The translations under genes were made by a program, and so were the position numbers. The notes beneath the pieces are model-generated. The model was given only the letters and a program-made list of their open reading frames with translations, was not told the DNA's origin and made no database searches. A stretch of DNA of 64,000 nt from Fervidobacterium pennivorans (lineage in GTDB: Bacteria; Thermotogota; Thermotogae; Thermotogales; Fervidobacteriaceae), in contig NZ_CP011393.1 of the NCBI RefSeq assembly GCF_001644665.1, forward strand, positions 310,001 to 374,000, in the 5' to 3' direction. Positions 10,712 to 34,336 of the stretch are shown one piece after another. Position 1 is the stretch's first letter. Each line of letters begins with the position of its first letter.

Positions 10712-11830
10712 TCATTCCATTCTCACCATCACATACCTTTCAAACAACGGATCAATTATTTGGTATTTTCCCCTACCGAACTTTTCGATTATTCCACGCT
10801 CGGTAAGCTTCTTAAGCAAGTTATTTAACGTAGTAGCATTCGGGATTTTATATTTCTGAAGGTTAGCAATACTAAAATAACCATCTGTTTGCTCACTAAT
10901 TAATTTTAGCACATTTTTTAAATATTTGTACTCAAGAGTTTCAATTATTAACTCATACCCATACGATTCCCTTTCACAAAGGCTATCAAAAATAACATCT
11001 ATTTCTTCCTCGCTTATCAGCTCCCCTGCCTTATCCCACAGCTCATAGCACAGAAGTTGGAGAAAATATGGGTGTCCTTTCGTAAGCCTATATATCCTCT
11101 TTGCATCCTCCAATATTATCTTTTTTCCAGTGCTATTAAAGTTTTCAACGATATACTCAATACTTTCATCTTCAGGAAGCGTCTTTCCAATATCTACTCG
11201 CAAAGACGAATGATACAACACCCCTGACTTTTCAAAGAATAACTCTTCAATCATGTGCCTCATCGAACCTGAGAAAACAAACACTACATCTTTTTGCGTC
11301 TGGTAGAAACTTCTCAAACTCTCCGGTAGCTTCTCACTAATAGATTTATAAGCCTGAAACTCATCGAGCACAACAACTAACTTCTTCTTTAAATCTTTTT
11401 GCACACCTTCCAATAGTTCATACATCTGCTCAATGAGTAACTCATCGCTTAAATCGTTATCTATCGAAAACGAAATCCCACCAACATCAAAAGAAAAACT
11501 CACATGCTTTGCAATATGCTTAAGATACCTACCCACAAAGCTCATAGGGTTTTTACCTTTCAGCAACTCGTATGCCTGCTTCATCATCTTTTGCACAAAA
11601 CCTTTCAACGAAAAACAACCAAACAAATCAAGATAGATTACCGGATACCCACCTTCAGCTATGAACTTTTGCAAAAGCCATGTCTTACCAAACCTTCGTG
11701 GACCAACAACCACAACATTGTTCCCACTCTCAACTGCATTGCACAAATAACTATATTCTTCCTTTCTATCAATAAAATTCTCTGGAGTGTACGTCTTGCC
11801 AATCTTAAACGGATTAACAAAACTCCCCAT
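10712..11830 (-). CDS. AAA-type ATPase with C-terminal winged helix, copy 1
   Basis: 372 residues from ATG 11830 (GGAGGTGGTTGT before it). Walker A GPRRFGKT (residues 43-50), Walker B LVVVLDE (~151-157), a sensor-like FVFSGSMRHM (~183) and a C-terminal winged-helix segment (FSIANLQKYKIPNATTLNNL) from about residue 305. This layout matches the archaeal-type ATPase/STAND-related P-loop family that is often duplicated in thermophiles; cellular roles are mostly unknown. It is nearly identical to the gene at 24413-25531, differing mainly in the last few residues. It diverges from the small sigma-like gene at 12054 across a shared 222-base region. A bare IstB-type transposition ATPase is unlikely because of the winged helix and absence of an IS21 transposase. 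Confidence 0.88.
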   Translation of the reverse strand: MGSFVNPFKIGKTYTPENFIDRKEEYSYLCNAVESGNNVVVVGPRRFGKTWLLQKFIAEGGYPVIYLDLFGCFSLKGFVQKMMKQAYELLKGKNPMSFVGRYLKHIAKHVSFSFDVGGISFSIDNDLSDELLIEQMYELLEGVQKDLKKKLVVVLDEFQAYKSISEKLPESLRSFYQTQKDVVFVFSGSMRHMIEELFFEKSGVLYHSSLRVDIGKTLPEDESIEYIVENFNSTGKKIILEDAKRIYRLTKGHPYFLQLLCYELWDKAGELISEEEIDVIFDSLCERESYGYELIIETLEYKYLKNVLKLISEQTDGYFSIANLQKYKIPNATTLNNLLKKLTERGIIEKFGRGKYQIIDPLFERYVMVRME

Positions 11831-11950
11831 ACAACCACCTCCAATTAGTTGTATCCGTCCTTGTGACAAAAAATTTTCCAAAAATAGTGCAAAATTGGTA
11901 GATACATCTAATTGACGAGTGGTTTTATAATTTTGCAACATATCTCCCCC

Positions 11951-12000
11951 TTGACACAGGGGCTTAAATTTTGGTATTATATGTATACATTAGTATACAT
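11951..12000 (+). promoter_or_regulatory. Strong promoter with overlapping 8-4-8 palindromic operator, copy 1
   Basis: -35 TTGACA (11951-11956), 18-base spacer and extended -10 TGGTATTAT (ends 11980), followed at once by the perfect palindrome ATGTATAC-ATTA-GTATACAT (11981-12000), which would cover the transcription start. It drives the sigma-like gene at 12054 (ribosome site AAGGAGG). A palindrome in this place is a classic repressor operator. An identical copy lies at 25650-25699. What binds it is unknown; the winged-helix ATPase encoded divergently is one candidate. Confidence 0.7.
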
Positions 12001-12053
12001 ATCCCCCACTGGTAACCATCCTCAAAAAAACTCTCTGCAAGGAGGTTTTTCCA

Positions 12054-12491
12054 ATGGAACAACAAAACGAGCAAAAGCACGTTCAAAAACAATTTGCGGA
12101 TGGGGCAGCAGAAGAAGAACTCCCGGCAGAAAAATGCTCGGAAGACATCAACCAATGGCACAATAAGGTTCTTAGCTACAAACATCTTGTCCGTCGTTGG
12201 ACTGCTTACTTTTGGGGTATCAACAAAGCCTTCCTTTATTCTTACGAAGACCTTGAACAAACAATCTGGTATATTCTCATGGTAGGCTTACAAGAATTTG
12301 ACGGAAGGGGTGATGAAGAACAATTTCTCAATTGGTACATACGAAACAAGGTTGTATCGATAATGATGTACGGCAAAAAACCCCCAAAATGCACACACTT
12401 GCCATTCACACCCATTCGCTTTGACTACGTCTCTCCTGACGAGTTGGCAGAAGTCAATGAACTATTTTACTCTGATGGAGAAGATGACTAA
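12054..12491 (+). CDS. Small protein resembling sigma-70 region 2 only (intact copy)
   Basis: 145 residues. Residues ~44-105 read like sigma region 2: LVRRWTAYFWG, SYEDLEQTIWYILMVGLQEF (63-82), then DGRGDEEQFLNWYIRNKVVS. This parallels [18 protein letters not shown] and [13 protein letters not shown] of the RpoD at the window end. No region 3 or 4 follows; instead there is a conserved tail KPPKCTHLPFTPIRFDYVS and NELFYSDGEDD. The start ATG follows AAGGAGGTTTTTCC. Three broken copies occur at 25753, 29862 and 34058. Comparison with copy 2 over the second half shows about twenty base changes and one amino-acid change (Gln to Lys), so the protein was under selection. Sigma relationship is inferred from pattern; it could be an anti-sigma-like mimic or a DNA-binding regulator. 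Confidence 0.75.
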   Translation: MEQQNEQKHVQKQFADGAAEEELPAEKCSEDINQWHNKVLSYKHLVRRWTAYFWGINKAFLYSYEDLEQTIWYILMVGLQEFDGRGDEEQFLNWYIRNKVVSIMMYGKKPPKCTHLPFTPIRFDYVSPDELAEVNELFYSDGEDD

Positions 12492-24412: not shown

Positions 24413-25531
24413 TTACCAAAGCTTTTTTCCTACATACCTTTCAAACAACGGATCAATTATTTGGTATTTTCCCCTACCGAACTTTTCGATTATTCCACGC
24501 TCGGTAAGCTTCTTAAGCAAGTTATTTAACGTAGTAGCATTCGGGATTTTATATTTCTGAAGGTTAGCAATACTAAAATAACCATCTGTTTGCTCACTAA
24601 TTAATTTTAGCACATTTTTTAAATATTTGTACTCAAGAGTTTCAATTATTAACTCATACCCATACGATTCCCTTTCACAAAGGCTATCAAAAATAACATC
24701 TATTTCTTCCTCGCTTATCAGCTCCCCTGCCTTATCCCACAGCTCATAGCACAGAAGTTGGAGAAAATATGGGTGTCCTTTCGTAAGCCTATATATCCTC
24801 TTTGCATCCTCCAATATTATCTTTTTTCCAGTGCTATTAAAGTTTTCAACGATATACTCAATACTTTCATCTTCAGGAAGCGTCTTTCCAATATCTACTC
24901 GCAAACACGAATGATACAAAACCCCTGACTCTTCAAAGAATAACTCTTCAATCATGTGCCTCATCGAACCTGAGAAAACAAACACTACATCTTTTTGCGT
25001 CTGGTAGAAACTTCTCAAACTCTCCGGTAGCTTCTCACTAATAGATTTATAAGCCTGAAACTCATCGAGCACAACAACTAACTTCTTCTTTAAATCTTTT
25101 TGCACACCTTCCAATAGTTCATACATCTGCTCAATGAGTAACTCATCGCTTAAATCGTTATCTATCGAAAACGAAATCCCACCAACATCAAAAGAAAAAC
25201 TCACATGCTTTGCAATATGCTTAAGATACCTACCCACAAAGCTCATAGGGTTTTTACCTTTCAGCAACTCGTATGCCTGCTTCATCATCTTTTGCACAAA
25301 ACCTTTCAACGAAAAACAACCAAACAAATCAAGATAGATTACCGGATACCCACCTTCAGCTATGAACTTTTGCAAAAGCCATGTCTTACCAAACCTTCGT
25401 GGACCAACAACCACAACATTGTTCCCACTCTCAACTGCATTGCACAAATAACTATATTCTTCCTTTCTATCAATAAAATTCTCTGGAGTGTACGTCTTGC
25501 CAATCTTAAACGGATTAACAAAACTCCCCAT
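24413..25531 (-). CDS. AAA-type ATPase with C-terminal winged helix, copy 2
   Basis: Near-duplicate of the gene at 10712-11830 with the same start context (ATG 25531 after GGAGGTGGTTGT), the same Walker A GPRRFGKT and Walker B LVVVLDE. Differences seen: Lys to Glu and Ser to Cys in the FFEESGVLYHSCLRVD stretch, and the last residues (RYVGKKLW instead of RYVMVRME), where the two copies lose homology at 10733/24434. Near-identity continues through the intergenic region into the first half of the sigma-like gene. A recent duplication or gene conversion of about 1.45 kb is implied. Confidence 0.88.
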   Translation of the reverse strand: MGSFVNPFKIGKTYTPENFIDRKEEYSYLCNAVESGNNVVVVGPRRFGKTWLLQKFIAEGGYPVIYLDLFGCFSLKGFVQKMMKQAYELLKGKNPMSFVGRYLKHIAKHVSFSFDVGGISFSIDNDLSDELLIEQMYELLEGVQKDLKKKLVVVLDEFQAYKSISEKLPESLRSFYQTQKDVVFVFSGSMRHMIEELFFEESGVLYHSCLRVDIGKTLPEDESIEYIVENFNSTGKKIILEDAKRIYRLTKGHPYFLQLLCYELWDKAGELISEEEIDVIFDSLCERESYGYELIIETLEYKYLKNVLKLISEQTDGYFSIANLQKYKIPNATTLNNLLKKLTERGIIEKFGRGKYQIIDPLFERYVGKKLW

Positions 25532-25649
25532 ACAACCACCTCCAATTAGTTGTATCCATCCTTGTGACAAAAAATTTTCCAAAAATAGTGCAAAATTGGT
25601 AGATACATCTAATTGACGGGTGGTTTTATAATTTTGCAACATATCCCCC

Positions 25650-25699
25650 TTGACACAGGGGCTTAAATTTTGGTATTATATGTATACATTAGTATACAT
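25650..25699 (+). promoter_or_regulatory. Promoter with palindromic operator, copy 2
   Basis: TTGACA (25650-25655), 18-base spacer, TATTAT (25674-25679) and the 8-4-8 palindrome ATGTATAC-ATTA-GTATACAT at 25680-25699. Identical to the copy at 11951-12000. It drives the frameshifted sigma-like copy at 25753. Confidence 0.7.
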
Positions 25700-25752
25700 A
25701 TCCCCCACTGGTAACCATCCTCAAAAAAACTCTCTGCAAGGAGGTTTTTCCA

Positions 25753-26189
25753 ATGGAACAACAAAACGAACAAAAGCACGTTCAAAAACAATTTGCGGAT
25801 GGGGCAGCAGAAGAAAAACTCCCGGCAGAAAAATGCTCGGAAGACATCAACCAATGGCACAATAAAGTTCTTAGCTACAAACATCTTGTGCGTAGATGGA
25901 CTGCTTACTTTTGGGGTATCAACAAAGCATTCCTCTATTCGTACGAAGACCTCGAACAGACTATTTGGTATATTCTAATGGTAGGCCTCAAAGAATTCGA
26001 CGGAAGGGGAGATGAAGAGCAGTTTTTGAATTGGTACATAAGAAACAAATAGTATCTATAATGATGTACGGCAAAAAGCCACCCAAATGTACGCACTTAC
26101 CGTTTACACCCATTCGCTTCGACTATGTTTCACCGGATGAAATGGCTGAAGTTAATGAACTATTCTATTCAGATGGTGAGGATGATTGA
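25753..26189 (+). pseudogene. Sigma-region-2-like gene, copy 2, one-base frameshift
   Basis: The frame from ATG 25753 matches copy 1 for 99 codons and stops at 26050 because one base is missing after AACAA (AACAAATAG in place of AACAAGGTTG). Past that point the other frame continues VSIMMYGKKPPKCTHLPFTP and NELFYSDGEDD to a stop at 26189, so the rest is intact. The 99-residue product would keep nearly all of the region-2-like part and lose the conserved tail. Either a recent inactivation or a single-base sequencing error. Confidence 0.78.
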
Positions 26190-26274: not shown

Positions 26275-27240
26275 TCATTCTATTGTACAATCACTCAAAA
26301 GTTGTGGATACACCAACCACCTACCCTCTGGCTTTATCGCAATTAGTTGCTTACGTTCTATCATCTTTCTCACTGCATCCGTACTCTTTCCAATCTGATT
26401 TGCAAATTCGTCGACTTTAACCAATTTATCCCTATTAGCAGAACAAATTTCCCTATCAAAAGCCTCGATTAAACTGTACGCTATCATTCTTGCAAGTGGT
26501 TTTGTATCCTCCGTTGAGAACATTGCATCTATCTTCTCTGGCGTTTGATCGTTTACTGACTCTCGGAACAACTTTCTAATCCCTTTTTCCGCACTTTCCA
26601 ACGCCTTAATATATTCCATACGCTCACTGTCATCCATACCTTTAACTACTATATTCAAATATCCATAGTAGATCAAAATAGTATTCGTCAAAATTCTCCC
26701 TATCCTGCCGTTACCATCCTCGAAAGGATGGATGCTTTCAAACAACACATGAGTTCTTGCGGTAGCTTCGTGAACCGGGTGTTTTTGATAGGCATATTCT
26801 ACATATCTGATCCACAACTTAACCCAGTCTGCAATATCGTATTCTGGTGGTTTAATTTTCGCACCGGTTATCTTTATTGGTCCATATCTAAAATTCCCAA
26901 GTCGGCTTTCATTCTGGATTAAACCATCAAACAACATTCTGTGGCATGTTCTCACTAAAGCAACAGTCAACAACTTTTCCTGCGTCTTGGAATACTCAAA
27001 AGCTAGATTGTAGAAAAATCTTGCCGTTTTAAAATAATTCACCACTTCACTTGCCGACTTGTAGTTTGTATTCAAAGCTCTGTCTAATTCATCCTCATCC
27101 ACAAAAATGCCCTCAATCATCAGGGAATTCCTTGTTTCTTCCTTAAGCATATATAACCATTCTTTATTTGTTATTTCAACAAAGATAGGTTTAAAAACTC
27201 TTCTTCTGCACTCTACTAGCCTTGTTAACATGTTATTCAT
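26275..27240 (-). CDS. Fic family AMP-transferase with N-terminal inhibitory motif
   Basis: 321 residues from ATG 27240 (GGAGGTTACAAT before it). The complete Fic motif HPFEDGNGRIGR is at 171-182. An (S/T)xxxE(G/N) inhibitory motif, SLMIEG at 39-44, lies ahead of the Fic core, which marks a class II self-inhibited Fic protein. The C-terminus (VDEFANQIGKSTDAVRKMIE) looks like a winged helix. Such proteins transfer AMP from ATP to Ser/Thr/Tyr of targets; many Fic-wHTH proteins seem to regulate their own transcription. It is convergent with the sigma-like copy 2. The similar arrangement recurs at 30411, where the catalytic His is lost. Confidence 0.92.
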   Translation of the reverse strand: MNNMLTRLVECRRRVFKPIFVEITNKEWLYMLKEETRNSLMIEGIFVDEDELDRALNTNYKSASEVVNYFKTARFFYNLAFEYSKTQEKLLTVALVRTCHRMLFDGLIQNESRLGNFRYGPIKITGAKIKPPEYDIADWVKLWIRYVEYAYQKHPVHEATARTHVLFESIHPFEDGNGRIGRILTNTILIYYGYLNIVVKGMDDSERMEYIKALESAEKGIRKLFRESVNDQTPEKIDAMFSTEDTKPLARMIAYSLIEAFDREICSANRDKLVKVDEFANQIGKSTDAVRKMIERKQLIAIKPEGRWLVYPQLLSDCTIE

Positions 27241-27668
27241 ATTGTAACCTCCGTATTTTGTCCACTTTTTTCGAGAGGCTGTATACATCTGAACCAAAGT
27301 TTCTTTATCTAAATAATTTTCGAACAGCATCCCTTTGTCCTGTTTGAAGTTAAAAAGCGATATCTGGACAAGTAGTTACACCTGTGAAATTTGTTAATAA
27401 CTTTAGTGTAATACGAAAAGACAGAACATTGTTCAATCACAGCTATCTTTATTTTATCACAAAGTCGTACTCACGATTAGCAAGAGCCTTTGAAAATGTA
27501 CTTTATTTTCTGTCGCTTACAATTTATGTGTTTTTTTGCAAAGTTCTTGGCCTCATCTGTCGCTTTAATCTCACCACACACAACTACTGCTTTGACTATT
27601 TCTTCTCACTTTTCCAGTTCACATCTAACTTAGTGATGTCTCAAGACTGTTTTTAAGTATAAAACAAA
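27241..27668. other. Non-coding gap upstream of fic
   Basis: No frame here resembles a protein. An upstream extension of the fic frame (to 27330) lacks a ribosome site and is probably 5' untranslated. The rest is A/T-rich and shows no repeat or strong hairpin. Confidence 0.4.
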
Positions 27669-27739
27669 GGGACCACCCACGCCCCAATTCAAAAGGATTT
27701 TCAAATAATCCAAACAAACGAGAGGTCAAGGGTGGTCCC
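27669..27739. repeat. Small structured repeat, copy A (10-bp perfect inverted ends)
   Basis: GGGACCACCC at 27669-27678 pairs perfectly with GGGTGGTCCC at 27730-27739. The interior (AATTCAAAAGGATTTT, AAACGAG, AGGTC) is shared with 31672-31730, where the outer arms are shorter (CCCACG/CGTGGG). A 71-base element with complementary ends could be a miniature mobile element or a structured RNA. Confidence 0.6.
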
Positions 27740-27819
27740 AAAAATTTTATACCACAAAACTTCCGCTTTCAACAGCTTTGATTCAAAAATTCTAAAGCCA
27801 AAATTTGTTAAAATAATGA

Positions 27820-28462
27820 GTGTACGAGCAAGAAAAAAGAAGGTTTGGACGCTTGAAAGGCAAAAACGAAAAAACTCTCAGCAGCTCTCAATTAAACAAC
27901 AAGTTCTACATCTTCAGAGTCACCCTCGCAAAATCTTGGATACGTGCGCCATTTTTGGAAAAAGTTGATGAGCCATCGTACCCAGTCATCGCAGCTCTGG
28001 GCAAAACCACACCCTATCGACTGGGATTAACGATCATCGACGCTTTCGAATTTGATTTCGACCATCTCTTCGACTTTTTTGACAACACAAAAAACTGGAT
28101 CAACTCAAAAGTACGATACGAACTCAAAATAGACTTGGAAGGTGATGAAGGCATAGTGGACCTTAAAAAAATTATTCTCAGACCTGCCCCCCGAGAAGTA
28201 CAAATTAGTGGAGCGTATAATCAAGAACCTACCGACAAAGAAAGGTGTAAAAAAGTCAAAGTCTGCCAAGTTTTCACAAACCCCGCCAAAAAATGCTATT
28301 CCTATTTGACTACGGCGATGAGTGGCAGTTCATTGCCGAACTAAAGAAAATCACCGAACCAGAACCGAACAAGAAATCCCCTTCAATCCTTGAAAGCTTT
28401 GGGAGCCACCAAAGCAGTATCCTGATTACGAAGAAGAGCTGGAAGAAGAACCTGAAGAGTGA
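27820..28462 (+). pseudogene. pRiA4b ORF-3-like protein gene with two frameshifts
   Basis: The first frame gives FYIFRVTLAKSWIRAPFLEK and FDHLFDFFDNTKNW, matching the start of the plasmid pRiA4b ORF-3-like family. After a one-base shift in the A6 run at 28288-28293 the second frame gives FLFDYGDEWQFIAELKKI, the family hallmark YDFGDxWxHxIxLE. A second missing base near 28400 moves to a third frame ending PPKQYPDYEEELEEEPEE and a stop at 28462. The restored protein would be about 215 residues. Function of the family is unknown; members ride on plasmids and IS-rich regions. Confidence 0.78.
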
Positions 28463-28511
28463 GCACGCTCAAACACTATCTATCCTTAATCTTGTAAGCA
28501 TAAGCTCCAAA

Positions 28512-28629
28512 TCGTTCTACCGATTCGTTTCCATAGAGAACGAATTTCAAACAAAATCGTTCTGTTAGAGAACGGTTTTTAAATTTTTTGCATTTTTCGT
28601 TTTGAAAAAGAACGAAAATGATGTATAAT
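28512..28629 (+). promoter_or_regulatory. Promoter with cluster of TTCGTTnT/AGAACGAA operators
   Basis: Three inverted repeats of one motif: TTCGTT...AACGAA at 28524-28544, CGTTCT-GTTAG-AGAACG at 28558-28574 and TTCGTT...AACGAA at 28596-28616; an extra half site TCGTTCT is at 28512. The third overlaps the -35 TTGAAA (28602-28607) of a promoter with a 16-base spacer and -10 TATAAT (28624-28629). A start about 30 bases before the ATPase ATG (28667) is implied. The layout indicates tight control by a dimeric repressor. Confidence 0.65.
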
Positions 28630-28666
28630 AGTTCTGAAACTTGCACAACACTTGGAGGTGTAGGTC

Positions 28667-29836
28667 ATGAACATCGAGAATGTGCTGGAACTACTTGAAT
28701 TGAGAATGAAAAGGTCTATATCTTTTCTTCCAGCAAAGCGAAGATTGTACTTTGAGGAATTGAAAAAGCGCTTCGTAAGCAGAGGAATATTATTATGTGG
28801 ACCTCGTGGTAGTGGAAAAACGACATTCCTGCTCTCAATCGCGCAGGAAGAAAACATGTTCTACATATCCGCAGACGACCCGCTTGTTGGTGTTGTCCCG
28901 TTCTACGAGCTGAGCCAACATATCCTTTCATCCTATGACGGAATAATCATCGATGAAATACATTTTCTAAAAGATTGGGGAATCCAACTCAAAAGTCTTT
29001 ACGATTCATTTCCGAACAAAAAAATATGGATTAGTGATAGTAGTTCGATAATGCTGCACAAAAGCATCGCGGAACTCTCGCGAAGATTCGTTATCATCTC
29101 ACTTCCCCTCATGTCTTTACGAGAGTTCATACACTTTGAGACAGGAAAAATACTGCCTGTTATTACCGACCCGTTTAGTAGCGAGCTATCGGATATATCG
29201 ATGAAAATACTCCGAGAGGTCGATGTGATGAAATACTTCAAATTCTACAAAGACCACGGCACAAGACCATTCTACACTGAACCAAACTTCAAAGACCGCA
29301 TCATGAACATCATCCAAAAATCCATCTACTACGATATCCCTCACATCGTTGGTACACTAAGTGAGAACCATTTCGGAGTCATGAACGCCATCGTTAGCTA
29401 TTTGGCATACTCGAAAATACCGACAATAAACGTAGAAAGCATGTGCAAAGAATGGAGACTGAGCAAAGAAAAGCTCTATCAACTTCTAAATGCCATGGGC
29501 CAAGTCGGGCTCGTAACCATCGTTCAAAAATCTCTCATCGAAAGCCCATACTCAAAAGGTGCGAAAATATTCTTCTCAGACCCAGTTATCTACAGCGCAT
29601 TGGATGGAGAAATCGGCAACTTCCGTGAAGCATTTGTCGTCTTTGCACTGAAAGACAGAGGAACTCTGTTGGCCCAAAAAGACGAAACAAAAGGTGATTA
29701 CATCTTCAACAACATAACCTTAGAAATAGGAGGGGCTAACAAGAAAAGAAAACAAGCACAATACGTAATTAGAGACGATATAGACCTCCCAGTGAGGAAC
29801 GCCATTCCCATGTGGACTCTCGGAATGGGGTGGTGA
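28667..29836 (+). CDS. AAA_14/DUF4143-type ATPase
   Basis: 389 residues. Walker A GPRGSGKT (45-52), Walker B GIIIDE (92-97) followed by IHFLKDWGIQLKSLYD, a sensor-like IWISDSSSIML, then LMSLREFIHFETGK, a segment typical of AAA_14 domains. The C-terminal part (from ~250) is DUF4143-like, with SKEKLYQLLNAMGQVGLVTI, KIFFSDPVIYSALDG and VIRDDIDLPVRNAIPMW. These ATPases are abundant in archaea and thermophilic bacteria and their roles are unknown. A decayed relative is at 14650. It is under an operator-rich promoter (28512) and is followed after 25 bases by the 3' end of a sigma-like copy. Confidence 0.9.
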   Translation: MNIENVLELLELRMKRSISFLPAKRRLYFEELKKRFVSRGILLCGPRGSGKTTFLLSIAQEENMFYISADDPLVGVVPFYELSQHILSSYDGIIIDEIHFLKDWGIQLKSLYDSFPNKKIWISDSSSIMLHKSIAELSRRFVIISLPLMSLREFIHFETGKILPVITDPFSSELSDISMKILREVDVMKYFKFYKDHGTRPFYTEPNFKDRIMNIIQKSIYYDIPHIVGTLSENHFGVMNAIVSYLAYSKIPTINVESMCKEWRLSKEKLYQLLNAMGQVGLVTIVQKSLIESPYSKGAKIFFSDPVIYSALDGEIGNFREAFVVFALKDRGTLLAQKDETKGDYIFNNITLEIGGANKKRKQAQYVIRDDIDLPVRNAIPMWTLGMGW

Positions 29837-29861
29837 AAATGTATAATTTAACGTAAGAAGA

Positions 29862-30041
29862 GGAAAAGAACAGTTTTTGAATTGGTACATCAGAAACAAA
29901 GCTGTATCTATAATGATGTACGGCAAAAAGCCTCCAAAATGCACACACCTGCCGTTCATATTCATTCGCTTCGACTACGTTTCTCCAGACGAGCTTGCAG
30001 AACCAAATGAACTATTCTACTCCGATGGCGAGGATGATTGA
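29862..30041 (+). pseudogene. Sigma-region-2-like gene, copy 3 (3' half only)
   Basis: Reads EQFLNWYIRNKAVSIMMYGK, KPPKCTHLPF and VSPDELAEPNELFYSDGEDD to a stop at 30041, matching residues ~90-145 of copy 1. No start codon or region-2 front remains; it abuts the ATPase stop. Substitutions relative to the other copies are still mostly silent, so decay or truncation is recent. Confidence 0.8.
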
Positions 30042-30410
30042 ACGATTGAAAATGCCAGGTAGGAGCTTGTCTTTTTTCGTTTTTCACTTTCCCCAATTTC
30101 CAGTGCTTTTAAAATCTACTGATCCCACGTACTCAAAACCTTCAACTTGTTTTGAGATTGACGCATCATGGTATAATAGTGATGCATCACAAAGGTATAT
30201 TGACGCATCAGCAACGCATCGTGACGCATCATTTTGGTAAGCTGATGCAACAGCCAAATCTTGACCTACCTATAGGTCAAAAAAATTAAAAATTGACCTT
30301 TCGATAGGTCATATTTTGCATCAAAGTATTCTTGCCGGCCCACTTTTAATCACTTCTTCTTTCGTACAGCTTTGAATGGTATAATCCTGAACCTGCAAAT
30401 GAATTAAAAA
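30042..30410. promoter_or_regulatory. Gene-free control-like region with two operator families
   Basis: An extended -10 TGGTATAAT (30169-30177, plus) is surrounded by copies of TGACGCATCA or near variants at 30159, 30180, 30201, 30212 and 30222, with a partial one at 30243. Then come two palindromes of a second type: TTGACCTA-CCTA-TAGGTCAA at 30261-30280 and a weaker TTGACCT...AGGTCA at 30293-30312. No frame follows on the plus strand before the convergent fic-like stop at 30411. It may control a lost gene, a small RNA, or be a multi-repressor landing site. Confidence 0.55.
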
Positions 30411-31577
30411 CTATTTCTTGTTCTTCTTTTTTGCCCCATCATTTTGCTTGGATTCTTTCTCAACGGTTTTCATCCTACCATAGCCAAGAAATTCCTCGAG
30501 TGATTTTGGTGCAATTTCAGGATACACATACCATTCTCCGTCTACCTTTTTGCGAATCAGCTTTCTACTTCGCACCAACCGCTGAACTTCAGAAAGCTTC
30601 TTCCCACTCTGCTTAACAAACTCGCTCAATGGAACAAGCTTGTCCTTCAGATAGTTATTTAACAAAATATCATACGAATCAGCCAAACCGTACATAATGC
30701 TTTTTATTAAGTCGCTACTTCTTCGCATTTGGTATAGAATTGCCAACTGCATTGGAAGTGTTTGGTCTGATACAAACTGTTCGTGGAATACCCTTGCCCC
30801 TCTCTCAAGTCCTCTGAAGTACATCTTCTTTTCCTCTTCTTCTGATGAAATAATTGCATTCCCGTACTTAGCCATCAAAAGAAGCATGTTCACGATAATC
30901 CGACCAACTCGACCATTTCCGTACTCGAAAGGTAGGATGCTCATGAACAGCGAATGGGAAAACTCTACGTTGTCCAATGTATAATTCCATCTTTGCGTAA
31001 ACAAAAGCCTCGTAAATTCAGACCAAATTTTCATAAACTCTTCGATATTATCCTTTGGGGTGAGTTCTTTCAGCAAAGATGGCACACCGGCATCTTCGAT
31101 ACTTGATGTCTTTCTATACTCTCCGCTCTTCTCCTTCCCAGGGATACCATAGAACAGACTTCTGTGAATCAACCTTGGCAGTTTTGGAAGTAAAAACAAC
31201 ACATTTTCGCGCATCTCCAGTGCCATACCATACATTGCCAGAGCAACTTCGTAGTACCTTATCACTTCCGCCCAGCTTGGTTTTACCTTATCCAACGAAT
31301 AACTCAAAACATCCGACAACTTCTTCTCACTAATCTTGCCTTTCAACACTTTCTCAATTATCTCTTCTGAATACTCTAACCTCTTAGCAGCGATTTCTTT
31401 AACTGCATCCATTTCTTCAAATGGCACTACAACACCATCAAGCGCACACGAATGCCAAGCCTCTTCCCAAAGCAATTGACCTTCGATATGCTCTAAGGTT
31501 AAATCATCAACAAAATCCATCAAAACGTCATCACGCCAGTCAACAATCAAATACAATTTGGAAAAATCTTGCGCCAT
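30411..31577 (-). CDS. Fic-like protein with catalytic His replaced by Leu
   Basis: 388 residues from ATG 31577 (GAGGTGAAGAGGT before it). The Fic loop reads LPFEYGNGRVGR at 215-226, so the catalytic His of HPFxxGNGR is Leu while the anion-binding GNGRxGR is kept. The inhibitory-type motif is SCALDG at 43-48, with Asp replacing the usual Glu. A C-terminal winged-helix-like part (PLSEFVKQSGKKLSEVQRLV) and a Lys-rich tail follow. It is a distant paralogue of the Fic at 26275 with the same order of parts. It cannot AMPylate by the known mechanism; it may bind nucleotide as a regulator, or use another chemistry. Confidence 0.86.
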   Translation of the reverse strand: MAQDFSKLYLIVDWRDDVLMDFVDDLTLEHIEGQLLWEEAWHSCALDGVVVPFEEMDAVKEIAAKRLEYSEEIIEKVLKGKISEKKLSDVLSYSLDKVKPSWAEVIRYYEVALAMYGMALEMRENVLFLLPKLPRLIHRSLFYGIPGKEKSGEYRKTSSIEDAGVPSLLKELTPKDNIEEFMKIWSEFTRLLFTQRWNYTLDNVEFSHSLFMSILPFEYGNGRVGRIIVNMLLLMAKYGNAIISSEEEEKKMYFRGLERGARVFHEQFVSDQTLPMQLAILYQMRRSSDLIKSIMYGLADSYDILLNNYLKDKLVPLSEFVKQSGKKLSEVQRLVRSRKLIRKKVDGEWYVYPEIAPKSLEEFLGYGRMKTVEKESKQNDGAKKKNKK

Positions 31578-31671
31578 ACCTCTTCACCTCATCGAATCGG
31601 TGTTTTCTATTCCAACACACACTCCCATTCCAATTCTACCGCAAAGCTGCATTCAGTCAAAACAAAAATTA

Positions 31672-31730
31672 CCCACGCTCCGAATTTTAGAAGGATTTTG
31701 AAACAACATAAACGAGGAAGAGGTCGTGGG
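31672..31730. repeat. Small structured repeat, copy B
   Basis: CCCACG (31672-31677) pairs with CGTGGG (31725-31730), and the interior resembles copy A at 27669-27739 (AATT, AAGGATTTT, AAACGAG, AGGTC in the same order). It lies 95 bases upstream of the fic-like start. Confidence 0.55.
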
Positions 31731-31753
31731 AGAATTAAAAAATTGCCTCTGCT

Positions 31754-31840: not shown

Positions 31841-33160
31841 TTAGCTGGCGAGAATTGTCTCAGCTAACCTATAACTTTTTCTCAAGTAGTCTAACGTATG
31901 CGGATCAGAGATTGCAATACTTTCAACATTTCCTGGTTCACCGTACAAATAGGTTCTATAAAGGACCCCGAGCCCTCGTAGTACACATGGAAAGAGAATA
32001 ACTTGTTTCAACTCTATCTTTTGTTCGTAACCATCCCTGTCAGACAAATCTACTAACCACTTTTTACCTCCTCGTATTGGAAATAGCTTATTATAGACTT
32101 CCATGGCATTTTTCACCTCTTCTACAGGTAATCCTGTTTTATCCGATAATATCTTGTATTCGTCATTCTCACGCTCTTTTAAAATGAATCCCCCAAATGC
32201 CCATAAAAACCACTGCCAAAATGTTGGATAAAGGTAGAAATATTTCTCGCTCCTAATTCGAGACATACCTTTTGAGAGAGAACCAGGAAGTTTGGCGAAA
32301 TCTTTCAGACTGCTATTTATTAAAAGTTCCGTAGCTGTCCTCAATATCGACAGCCTTGCTTTGTGTTCAACGTAAGTGGAAATCTGCAGAATGTTAAACT
32401 CGCAGTTGTAAAAGGTTTGATCAAACAATTCGTGCGGAATGCTCCTTTTTTCAGAGGTATCACGTTGCAGTCCCGCCATACACCTCTCAGAAAGTCTGTA
32501 GCCTTTTGAGGAATGATCCTTGTACAATTCGTTAAGTTTTTCCACATTATCTTCTAAAAAAAATACCTTGTTGTTCACTGTATTATAGTAATCATGTATA
32601 TCCTTTGCGCAGTTGGGAGAACTATCTTGATTGGTAAATTTACAGTTGCTTGTTCCCTTCTTCAAGGAATTTAAACACTCTATTACTTTACGCTCCAGCT
32701 TGTATGATTTTGTCCAAATTTCGATGTCATACTTACAAATTTTGTCGTTTCTCTGTAGCTTCAAAGAACTCATCGCCCTTTCCCAATCATCCAAATCATT
32801 TGATACATTCCTTAGCTCTACCCCAATCTTAGCAAGTCTTGATCTTACTTTCTCAATTCCCATTGTCTTTCCAAAATGCCTACTGTAGACCATAAGCCCT
32901 TTTTCTTTGCCTAAAAACTCCATCCAGCCCTTCAGCTTGAAAGCATCTGTTAAACCCCAATCCCCAGATTTAACCTCAACGATTGTTGTCTCACTGCTTT
33001 CTTCATTTAAAAAATTAGTTGCTACAATGTCCAACTCAAGAATATCTCCCCCACTTATGTTGCGTTCTACAAAAGCACCTGAAACTTGTAATAAGGCAGC
33101 AACATAATCTTCGAAATCCTTTCCGCTTAATACCGGAACCTCACGTTTTTTCTCTAACAT
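31841..33160 (-). CDS. PD-(D/E)XK nuclease-fold protein with unknown C-terminal domain
   Basis: 439 residues from ATG 33160 (GGGGTGAG before it). The N-terminal 100 residues carry a restriction-endonuclease-like core: Glu17 in DFEDYVAALL, Asp44 in ELDIVATNF and the Glu-Val-Lys of TIVEVKSGDWG (62-64), followed by a helix-rich LKGWMEFLGKEKGLMVYSRH. This matches the Mrr/NucS-like PD-(D/E)XK pattern with all catalytic residues. The remaining ~320 residues match nothing I know; they end in a segment around KWLVDLSDRDGYEQ. No methyltransferase or specificity subunit is nearby. Place in an accessory island between Fic-like and IS debris suggests a defence role, which is inference. Confidence 0.75.
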   Translation of the reverse strand: MLEKKREVPVLSGKDFEDYVAALLQVSGAFVERNISGGDILELDIVATNFLNEESSETTIVEVKSGDWGLTDAFKLKGWMEFLGKEKGLMVYSRHFGKTMGIEKVRSRLAKIGVELRNVSNDLDDWERAMSSLKLQRNDKICKYDIEIWTKSYKLERKVIECLNSLKKGTSNCKFTNQDSSPNCAKDIHDYYNTVNNKVFFLEDNVEKLNELYKDHSSKGYRLSERCMAGLQRDTSEKRSIPHELFDQTFYNCEFNILQISTYVEHKARLSILRTATELLINSSLKDFAKLPGSLSKGMSRIRSEKYFYLYPTFWQWFLWAFGGFILKERENDEYKILSDKTGLPVEEVKNAMEVYNKLFPIRGGKKWLVDLSDRDGYEQKIELKQVILFPCVLRGLGVLYRTYLYGEPGNVESIAISDPHTLDYLRKSYRLAETILAS

Positions 33161-34057: not shown

Positions 34058-34336
34058 TAAGGGGGTCAGCAAAGCATTCCGTATTTGTGTGAAAACCTCG
34101 AGCAAACCATTTGATATATCCTTATGGTGGGAGTGCAAGAATCCGACGGAAGCGGAGACGAGGCAGAATTTCTGAATTGGTACATGAGCAACAAAGTTGT
34201 GTCAATCATAACGTACAGCAAAATGCCACCAAAGTGCACGCATCTGCCATTCACACCCATCCGCTTTGATTACGTTTCACTTGATGAAATGGCTGAAGTT
34301 AATGAATTATTTTATTCCGATGGAGAGAACGATTGA
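34058..34336 (+). pseudogene. Sigma-region-2-like gene, copy 4 (decayed)
   Basis: Reads ENLEQTI, then an in-frame TGA where the other copies have Trp, then YILMVGVQESDGSGDEAEFL and KMPPKCTHLPFTPIRFDYVS to NELFYSDGEND and a stop at 34336. The front is frameshifted or missing. This is the most diverged copy; changes such as Tyr-Gly to Tyr-Ser suggest older decay. No ATPase gene accompanies it. Confidence 0.8.

What the first reader, a model, noticed from the sequence alone, without database searches (positions are those of the whole stretch)
26275..31577. Paired Fic proteins, one self-inhibited and one lacking the catalytic His
The Fic at 26275 has HPFEDGNGR and an inhibitory SLMIEG motif. The larger relative at 30411 has LPFEYGNGR (His to Leu) and SCALDG. 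Both end in winged-helix-like parts and both are convergent to a sigma-like 3' end. The dead copy keeps the phosphate-binding loop, so it may act as a nucleotide-binding regulator of the first or use other chemistry.
Basis: partly seen in the sequence, partly recalled or inferred. Interest (0 to 1): 0.65.

Follow-up and report, generated by a model that had tools for sequence, protein, structure and literature searches.

The report
Doubly dead Fic protein with DNA-binding tail
Next to an ordinary Fic toxin-type enzyme, this bacterium keeps a second, clearly selected Fic protein that has lost both key catalytic residues but kept its phosphate-binding loop and DNA-binding tail, so it probably works as a regulator rather than an enzyme.

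Summary
The 26275-27330(-) protein is a canonical self-inhibited Fic-HTH protein (SLMIEG, HPFEDGNGR). The 30411-31577(-) protein is a Fic-HTH homologue reading LPFEYGNGR. It is not a local mutation: all three His-less copies found (this one, a 94-95% orthologue and a 53% paralogue in a sister genome) share LPFEYGNGR and SCALDG. They form one clade, and 35 of 38 Fic matches in 103 related genomes keep the His. The window/sister-genome pair is under purifying selection (dN/dS 0.19). The parts kept best between the two diverged forms are the inhibitory helix (16/16), the anion loop (22/26) and the HTH (33/44); the substrate-docking flap drifts (14/31). An ~80-bp element lies upstream of both the active and the dead Fic gene; a model of it finds two copies in each of the two genomes, those two. 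Best reading: a pseudo-Fic DNA-binding regulator, like the catalysis-independent repressor function of CccR, perhaps controlling both Fic genes. DNA binding, ligand and target are inferred. Rivals: heteromeric antitoxin, sensor for a nearby nuclease, other chemistry. New variant of a known kind.

The parts
30411..31577 (-). His-less Fic-HTH protein (388 aa), the 'dead' Fic
   Evidence: PF02661 29.1 bits, cut-off 24; AF2 model pLDDT 73, best PDB matches are Fic proteins, Z about 22
30909..30935 (-). LPFEYGNGR: degenerate Fic loop (His->Leu, acid->Tyr, GNGR kept)
   Evidence: translation; invariant in 3 of 3 His-less copies
31434..31451 (-). SCALDG: relic of the inhibitory motif (Glu->Asp), in a 16/16 conserved helix
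30507..30638 (-). C-terminal HTH with beta wing
   Evidence: AF2 secondary structure; homologous to the HTH of the active Fic; 33/44 conserved between the diverged dead forms
26275..27330 (-). canonical class-II-like Fic-HTH protein (351 aa), SoFic-like
   Evidence: PF02661 54.2 bits; PADLOC SoFic E=1.3e-27
26704..26730 (-). HPFEDGNGR catalytic motif
   Evidence: translation
27109..27126 (-). SLMIEG inhibitory motif
   Evidence: translation
31640..31750 (-). upstream element of the dead Fic gene, homologous to the one before the active Fic
   Evidence: single-sequence nhmmer E=9.4e-4 with the active copy as query
27652..27755 (-). upstream element of the active Fic gene; strong hairpin
   Evidence: fold -35.2 kcal/mol, z -6.15
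31633..31660 (-). promoter-like site TTGACT-16-TAGAAT directly 3' of the element, before the dead Fic
   Evidence: consensus scan, no more than chance expects; a like site follows the element in G002
31841..33160 (-). PD-(D/E)XK (Mrr_cat-like) protein upstream of the dead Fic
   Evidence: PF04471 18.8 bits, below the cut-off of 21; D...ExK kept in 3 relatives
29847..30038 (+). C-terminal fragment of a sigma-70-region-2-like gene, convergent to the dead Fic
25759..26186 (+). frame-broken copy of the same sigma-like gene, convergent to the active Fic

Best explanation
The 30411-31577 protein is a stable, selected Fic pseudoenzyme that works as a DNA-binding regulator. Shown: it descends from the same HTH-bearing Fic subfamily as its neighbour; it lost the catalytic His and the metal-binding acid before the known copies diverged; it has been kept under purifying selection since; and it keeps three things above all, the inhibitory helix, the anion-binding GNGR loop and the C-terminal HTH, while the substrate-docking flap drifts. 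Inferred: the HTH binds DNA, most likely the ~80-bp element upstream of its own gene and of the active Fic gene, holding both low. Inferred more weakly: the retained helix/loop pocket binds a phosphate-bearing ligand or is locked by the Asp of SCALDG, and this sets whether the HTH binds. It would then be a natural counterpart of the catalysis-dead CccR mutant, which still regulates in trans.
For: Three of three His-less copies share LPFEYGNGR and SCALDG despite 53% identity. 35 of 38 PF02661 matches in 103 genomes keep the His. Single clade, support 100/100, stem 2.07 changes per column, sister (support 92/83) to the group holding the active neighbour. dN/dS 0.19 for the orthologue pair against 0.12 for the active pair. 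Between the diverged dead forms: inhibitory helix 16/16 (best of 373 windows), loop 22/26 (3 of 363 as good), HTH 33/44 (2 of 345), flap 14/31; between two active orthologues the flap is 21/30. Model: Fic core plus HTH with wing. Shared upstream element: the active copy as sole query finds the two dead-gene copies next best (E 3.9e-5 and 9.4e-4 in 92 kb; next hit 4.6); a model of it finds two copies in each of G000 and G002, at the two Fic genes, and nothing significant near active relatives in genomes without a dead copy. Precedent: CccR represses its own promoter through its HTH; the H192A allele still represses in recipients (PMC9755527, abstract and passages).
Against: DNA binding and regulation are untested. 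The element lies about 320-430 bp upstream of the active start, far for an operator, and about 60-170 bp upstream of the dead start. Hairpin folding is significant only for the active copy (z -6.15; -1.30 and 0.41 for the others). Its T-rich 3' edge also looks like a terminator. Both genomes are close relatives with homologous loci, so the shared element may be one event or a trace of cassette recombination. dead2 of G002 lacks the element. Only three His-less sequences are known, two nearly identical.
Confidence: 0.5

Rival explanations
1. Antitoxin-like partner: the dead Fic forms heteromers with the active Fic and blocks it, supplying its inhibitory helix or occupying the dimer interface.
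For: Fic-Fic neutralisation is known: Campylobacter Fic1 (with inhibitory motif) neutralises Fic2 (PMC5651007, abstract and passages). Here the two genes are 3 kb apart and the inhibitory helix is the best conserved part of the dead protein.
Against: The active Fic has its own inhibitory motif, and intact relatives live without a dead partner (G001, G016, G078, G062). The genes are not an operon: separate upstream elements and an oppositely directed ATPase gene lie between. The inhibitory Glu is Asp. G002 holds two dead forms for one active Fic.
Confidence: 0.2
2. Sensor or adaptor of a defence module: the dead Fic works with the neighbouring PD-(D/E)XK nuclease-like protein (in G002 also an OLD-type ATPase) rather than with the active Fic.
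For: In the family the full-length nuclease-like protein occurs only in the two genomes with dead Fic, and nuclease pair and dead pair have diverged in parallel (50% and 53%). Neighbours are OLD/Gabija-like and other defence-type genes.
Against: Same two related genomes, so one event. Spacing and order differ: nuclease->dead1 in the window, OLD->dead1 and nuclease2 convergent with dead2 in G002. Relatives of the nuclease in G102 and in the two Streptomyces plasmids examined (of four found) stand without an annotated or visible Fic in the held stretch.
Confidence: 0.17
3. Still an enzyme, using metal-independent or non-His chemistry on another substrate.
For: Non-canonical Fic motifs can change chemistry (PMC8401265, passages); a Doc-type clade with Gln for His was proposed to be possibly active (PMC4454073, passages). 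The pocket is conserved.
Against: Both the base and the metal ligand are lost, replaced by Leu and Tyr, and the docking flap is unconstrained.
Confidence: 0.08
4. Decaying gene: a pseudogene on its way out.
For: The locus holds broken genes (sigma-like copies, split PRiA4-like gene), and active-type Fic genes do decay in G004 and G013.
Against: Intact in 3 of 3 copies, dN/dS 0.19, dN 0.35 with saturated dS between dead1 and dead2, fixed motifs.
Confidence: 0.04

Closest known systems
CccR of Yersinia pseudotuberculosis (PMC9755527)
   Same: Fic domain with N-terminal inhibitory motif plus C-terminal HTH; HTH represses its own promoter; the H192A allele still represses in trans
   Different: CccR keeps the His and AMPylates FtsZ; here His and acid are naturally lost and an intact Fic sits nearby
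CbFic2 of Coxiella burnetii (PMC10628234, abstract and outline)
   Same: Fic plus C-terminal HTH, activity tied to DNA binding; model match 8cil Z 17.6 over 276 residues, rmsd 10.8
   Different: catalytically active
SoFic (PMC12249575, abstract and outline; 3eqx/3zcn)
   Same: Fic plus C-terminal winged helix; the active neighbour hits the PADLOC SoFic model; dead model Z 19.2 to 3eqx
   Different: SoFic is an active toxin; NCBIfam SoFic equivalog cut-off (550 bits) not reached by either window protein (39.4 and 19.4 bits)
Campylobacter fetus Fic1/Fic2 pair (PMC5651007)
   Same: two Fic proteins in one locus, one with degenerate motif
   Different: there the degenerate one (HPFREGNTR) keeps the His and is the toxin, and the genes overlap by 1 bp
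BepC and Bep8 of Bartonella (PMC8401265, passages)
   Same: non-canonical Fic loops kept in a clade; BepC binds GEF-H1 with no enzymatic activity found
   Different: host-targeted effectors; BepC keeps the His and has Lys for the acid
Doc clade D2, His->Gln (PMC4454073, passages)
   Same: clade-wide loss of the catalytic His
   Different: Doc-type single-domain proteins with GNKR-type loop; here Leu, GNGR and an HTH

Membership tests
Fic (PF02661 / Fido fold) | sequence match over the curated cut-off | tested here: met
   29.1 bits, cut-off 24
Fic (PF02661 / Fido fold) | Fido fold | tested here: met
   AF2 model pLDDT 73; 3cuc Z 22.5, rmsd 3.1, 241 aligned; FICD 6i7g Z 22.2
Fic (PF02661 / Fido fold) | catalytic His of HPFx(D/E)GN(G/K)R | tested here: not met
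   Leu in 3 of 3 copies
Fic (PF02661 / Fido fold) | acidic metal ligand of the motif | tested here: not met
   Tyr in 3 of 3 copies
Fic (PF02661 / Fido fold) | anion-binding GNGR and following Arg | tested here: met
   GNGRVGR / GNGRVSR
Class II Fic | (S/T)xxxE(G/N) inhibitory motif | tested here: not met
   SCALDG: Ser and Gly kept, Glu is Asp
Fic-HTH regulators (CccR type) | C-terminal HTH joined to a Fic domain | tested here: met
   homology to the active neighbour through residue 355; HTH with wing in the model; but no Pfam HTH model hit for the dead protein
Fic-HTH regulators (CccR type) | binds its own promoter and represses | not testable with these tools
   only a shared upstream element
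FicTA-type toxin-antitoxin pair | adjacent or overlapping genes in one operon | tested here: not met
   3 kb apart, an oppositely directed ATPase gene between
FicTA-type toxin-antitoxin pair | physical neutralisation | not testable with these tools
   none
Doc clade with Gln for His (PMC4454073) | Qx(F/Y)x(D/E)(G/V)NKR | tested here: not met
   LPFEYGNGR

The most novel reading that the evidence does not exclude
A toxin-control circuit in which a Fic pseudoenzyme paralogue is the regulator: its dead pocket senses a phosphate-bearing signal (for instance a nucleotide change during phage attack) and its HTH then releases a shared upstream element that governs both the active Fic toxin and its own gene, and with it the neighbouring nuclease cassette.
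Probability: 0.18. Interest if true: 0.75.

Novelty: new variant of a known kind. Interest (0 to 1): 0.5.

Why it matters
Pseudoenzymes are well known among kinases (recalled), but selected Fic domains that lack both catalytic residues are hardly described; the seven searches I made of open-access papers listed none of this kind. If it is a regulator, it shows a route from a self-inhibited toxin enzyme to a transcription factor with the old active site as sensor, and gives a natural system in which DNA binding and catalysis of Fic-HTH proteins are already separated.

Tried and rejected
Local mutation: rejected, all three copies share Leu and Tyr.

Pseudogene: rejected on dN/dS and intact frames.

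Close relatives elsewhere: two scans of genome contigs and one of viral contigs with peptide patterns found none; these need exact peptide matches, so distant relatives could be missed. A DNA pattern for (L/F)PFxYGNG(R) in viral contigs gave 12 stretches; a Fic profile found no Fic in any of 462 frames from them. Fic relatives in viral contigs: 159 stretches matched, 109 relatives, 80 kept; 79 of those 80 gave a Fic frame of 150 aa or more, all 79 with His and Asp. Phages: no match. Plasmids: 4 records; I read 2 of the 4 and both keep HPF.DGNGR. Other bacterial phyla could be reached only through these scans.

Flap loss from the model: not claimed. DSSP shows no flap hairpin in either model, so the flap argument rests on sequence conservation alone. 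AvrB did not appear in the structure lists; that excludes nothing.

Rfam: no match in the window. Hairpin in dead-gene copies: not significant. Promoter-like sites: no more than chance expects. The model of the element (R1) was trained on all four copies, so its hits on them are by construction; the independent test is. Weak R1 hits in other genomes (E 0.0099 to 0.084) were taken as noise.

Counts: PF02661 38 matches in 25 of 103 genomes; motif read for all 38: 35 with His (33 of these with D/E at the metal position, one N, one Q), 3 with Leu/Tyr.
Full report
What is there. The window holds two Fic-domain proteins on the minus strand, 26275-27330 (351 aa) and 30411-31577 (388 aa), the only two PF02661 matches in the 2.06-Mb genome. 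The first carries SLMIEG and HPFEDGNGR, the second SCALDG and LPFEYGNGR. They are homologous through the C-terminal HTH (30% over 273 columns, E=3e-35). One point was missed: in the second protein the acidic metal ligand of the motif is Tyr, so two catalytic residues are gone, while GNGR and the following Arg remain. No call names the organism; size, composition and relatives make me think of Fervidobacterium (Thermotogota), from recall only.

Is the loss real and old? Yes. The sister genome G002 has an orthologue (94-95% identical) and a 53% identical paralogue, both with LPFEYGNGR and SCALDG. In 103 genomes of the phylum, 25 hold 38 PF02661 matches; I read the motif of all 38: 35 keep the His, 3 have Leu, and the three are these. 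In a tree of 25 proteins the three form one clade (100/100) on a long stem, next to the HTH-Fic group that contains the active neighbour, with moderate support for that placing (92/83). The orthologues have dN/dS 0.19, the active orthologues 0.12. Of 24 amino-acid differences between the dead orthologues, six lie in the first nine residues, where the two genomes' upstream sequences also part. Active-type Fic genes decay in two relatives: G004 has only fragments with the core deleted, and G013 has a stop inside.

What is kept. Between the two diverged dead forms, identity is 188 of 358 columns. The inhibitory helix is 16/16, the best of 373 windows of that size; the Fic loop region 22/26 (3 of 363 windows as good, itself included); the HTH 33/44 (2 of 345). 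The flap, which docks the substrate in active Fic proteins, is only 14/31 (249 of 358 windows as good). In a pair of active orthologues of similar overall identity (184/319) the flap is 21/30. So selection guards pocket and DNA-binding tail, not substrate docking. The region boundaries were chosen by me from motif and model. The model (pLDDT 73.0, pTM 0.65, from 25 sequences) gives a Fic core, the N-terminal helix with SCALDG, and an HTH with a two-stranded wing. Its best PDB matches are BT_2513 (3cuc, Z 22.5, rmsd 3.1, 241 aligned) and FICD (6i7g, Z 22.2, rmsd 2.8, 238 aligned).

A shared upstream element. Upstream of the active gene (27652-27755, -) lies an ~80-100-bp element with a strong hairpin (-35.2 kcal/mol, z -6.15). 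Used alone as a query on 92 kb (window plus the G002 region), it finds itself, its G002 orthologue, and next the regions upstream of the dead gene in G002 (E=3.9e-5) and in the window (E=9.4e-4); the next hit has E=4.6. The reverse searches agree in part. The G002 dead-gene copy finds both active copies at about 1e-5 but the window dead-gene copy only at E=2.1, behind a chance hit; the window dead-gene copy finds the active copies at 0.0019 and 0.0041. A covariance model trained on all four finds two copies in each of G000 and G002, and only weak matches (E 0.0099 or worse) in 5 of the other 18 genomes searched. In 17 partly overlapping loci (105 kb) around Fic relatives and Fic fragments of genomes without a dead copy there is no hit below E=3.2. 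The gene upstream differs at each place (divergent PRiA4-like frame, nuclease, OLD ATPase), so the Fic gene is what the places share. The paralogue dead2 lacks the element; a gene that looks TnpB-like by eye lies directly upstream of it. The 3' edge is T-rich and terminator-like in two of three regions scanned (not in 92), and hairpin folding is not significant in the dead-gene copies; function as operator is therefore inference.

Surroundings. The dead gene is preceded by a PD-(D/E)XK protein (31841-33160, -; PF04471 below its cut-off), with a relative 50% identical beside the dead genes of G002 and one 28-32% identical in G102 behind a gene that looks helicase-like by eye. In the 20 genomes of the family the full-length protein occurs only in the two with dead Fic, plus one partial weak match in G019. 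Both genomes are near relatives, so this is one event. Neighbouring genes match OLD/Gabija-type and other defence models.

Interpretation. The best reading is a Fic pseudoenzyme working as a DNA-binding regulator. The nearest tested precedent is CccR, a Fic-HTH protein that represses its own promoter through its HTH; the H192A allele restored repression in recipients and the HTH-less one did not (PMC9755527, abstract and passages). CbFic2 is also regulated by DNA through a C-terminal HTH (PMC10628234, abstract and outline), and Kinch et al. suggested that HTH domains fused to Fic may regulate expression of fic (PMC2686095, passages). Shown here: homology, loss, single clade, selection, which parts are kept, shared element. 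Inferred: DNA binding, repression, ligand. Rivals are an antitoxin-like heteromer, a sensor for the nuclease cassette, and other chemistry; each has some support but also a clear weakness, given above.

Novelty. Degenerate Fic loops are known: Campylobacter Fic2 (His kept, toxic; PMC5651007, passages), BepC with Lys for the acid and Bep8 (PMC8401265, passages), a Doc clade with Gln for His (PMC4454073, passages), AvrB without the motif (PMC2686095, passages). A selected Fic-HTH clade lacking both the His and the acid, beside an intact relative and sharing an upstream element with it, was not listed in my seven paper searches, which cover open-access papers only. I rate it a new variant of a known kind.

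Noticed in passing
window 12054-12491, 25759-26186, 29847-30038, 34061-34333 (all +): One intact and three partial or broken copies of a sigma-70-region-2-like gene, all in one orientation, lie between defence-type gene cassettes; G002 has the same pattern. Most other family genomes have one or two matches. They look like recombination repeats bounding swappable cassettes.
   Followed up: partly
window 10731-12487 and 24432-26185: A 1757-bp unit (AAA ATPase plus sigma-like gene) is duplicated at 96.7% identity.
   Followed up: no
window 27820-28568 (+); L012:16551-17300 (-): A PRiA4_ORF3-like gene is split over two frames in both genomes, so the break is shared or the frame change is real.
   Followed up: no
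L017:6582-7095 (-): G004 holds remnants of an active-type Fic gene with the catalytic core deleted but the HTH part open.
   Followed up: partly
window 31841-33160; L022:3159-4475; L169, L170: A ~440-aa PD-(D/E)XK family with a long conserved C-terminal part, also in Streptomyces plasmids as 'hypothetical protein', in G102 next to a helicase-like gene. No PDB relative by sequence.
   Followed up: partly
L012:13898-15156 (-): A gene that looks TnpB-like by eye, split over two frames, lies directly upstream of dead2 in G002.
   Followed up: no
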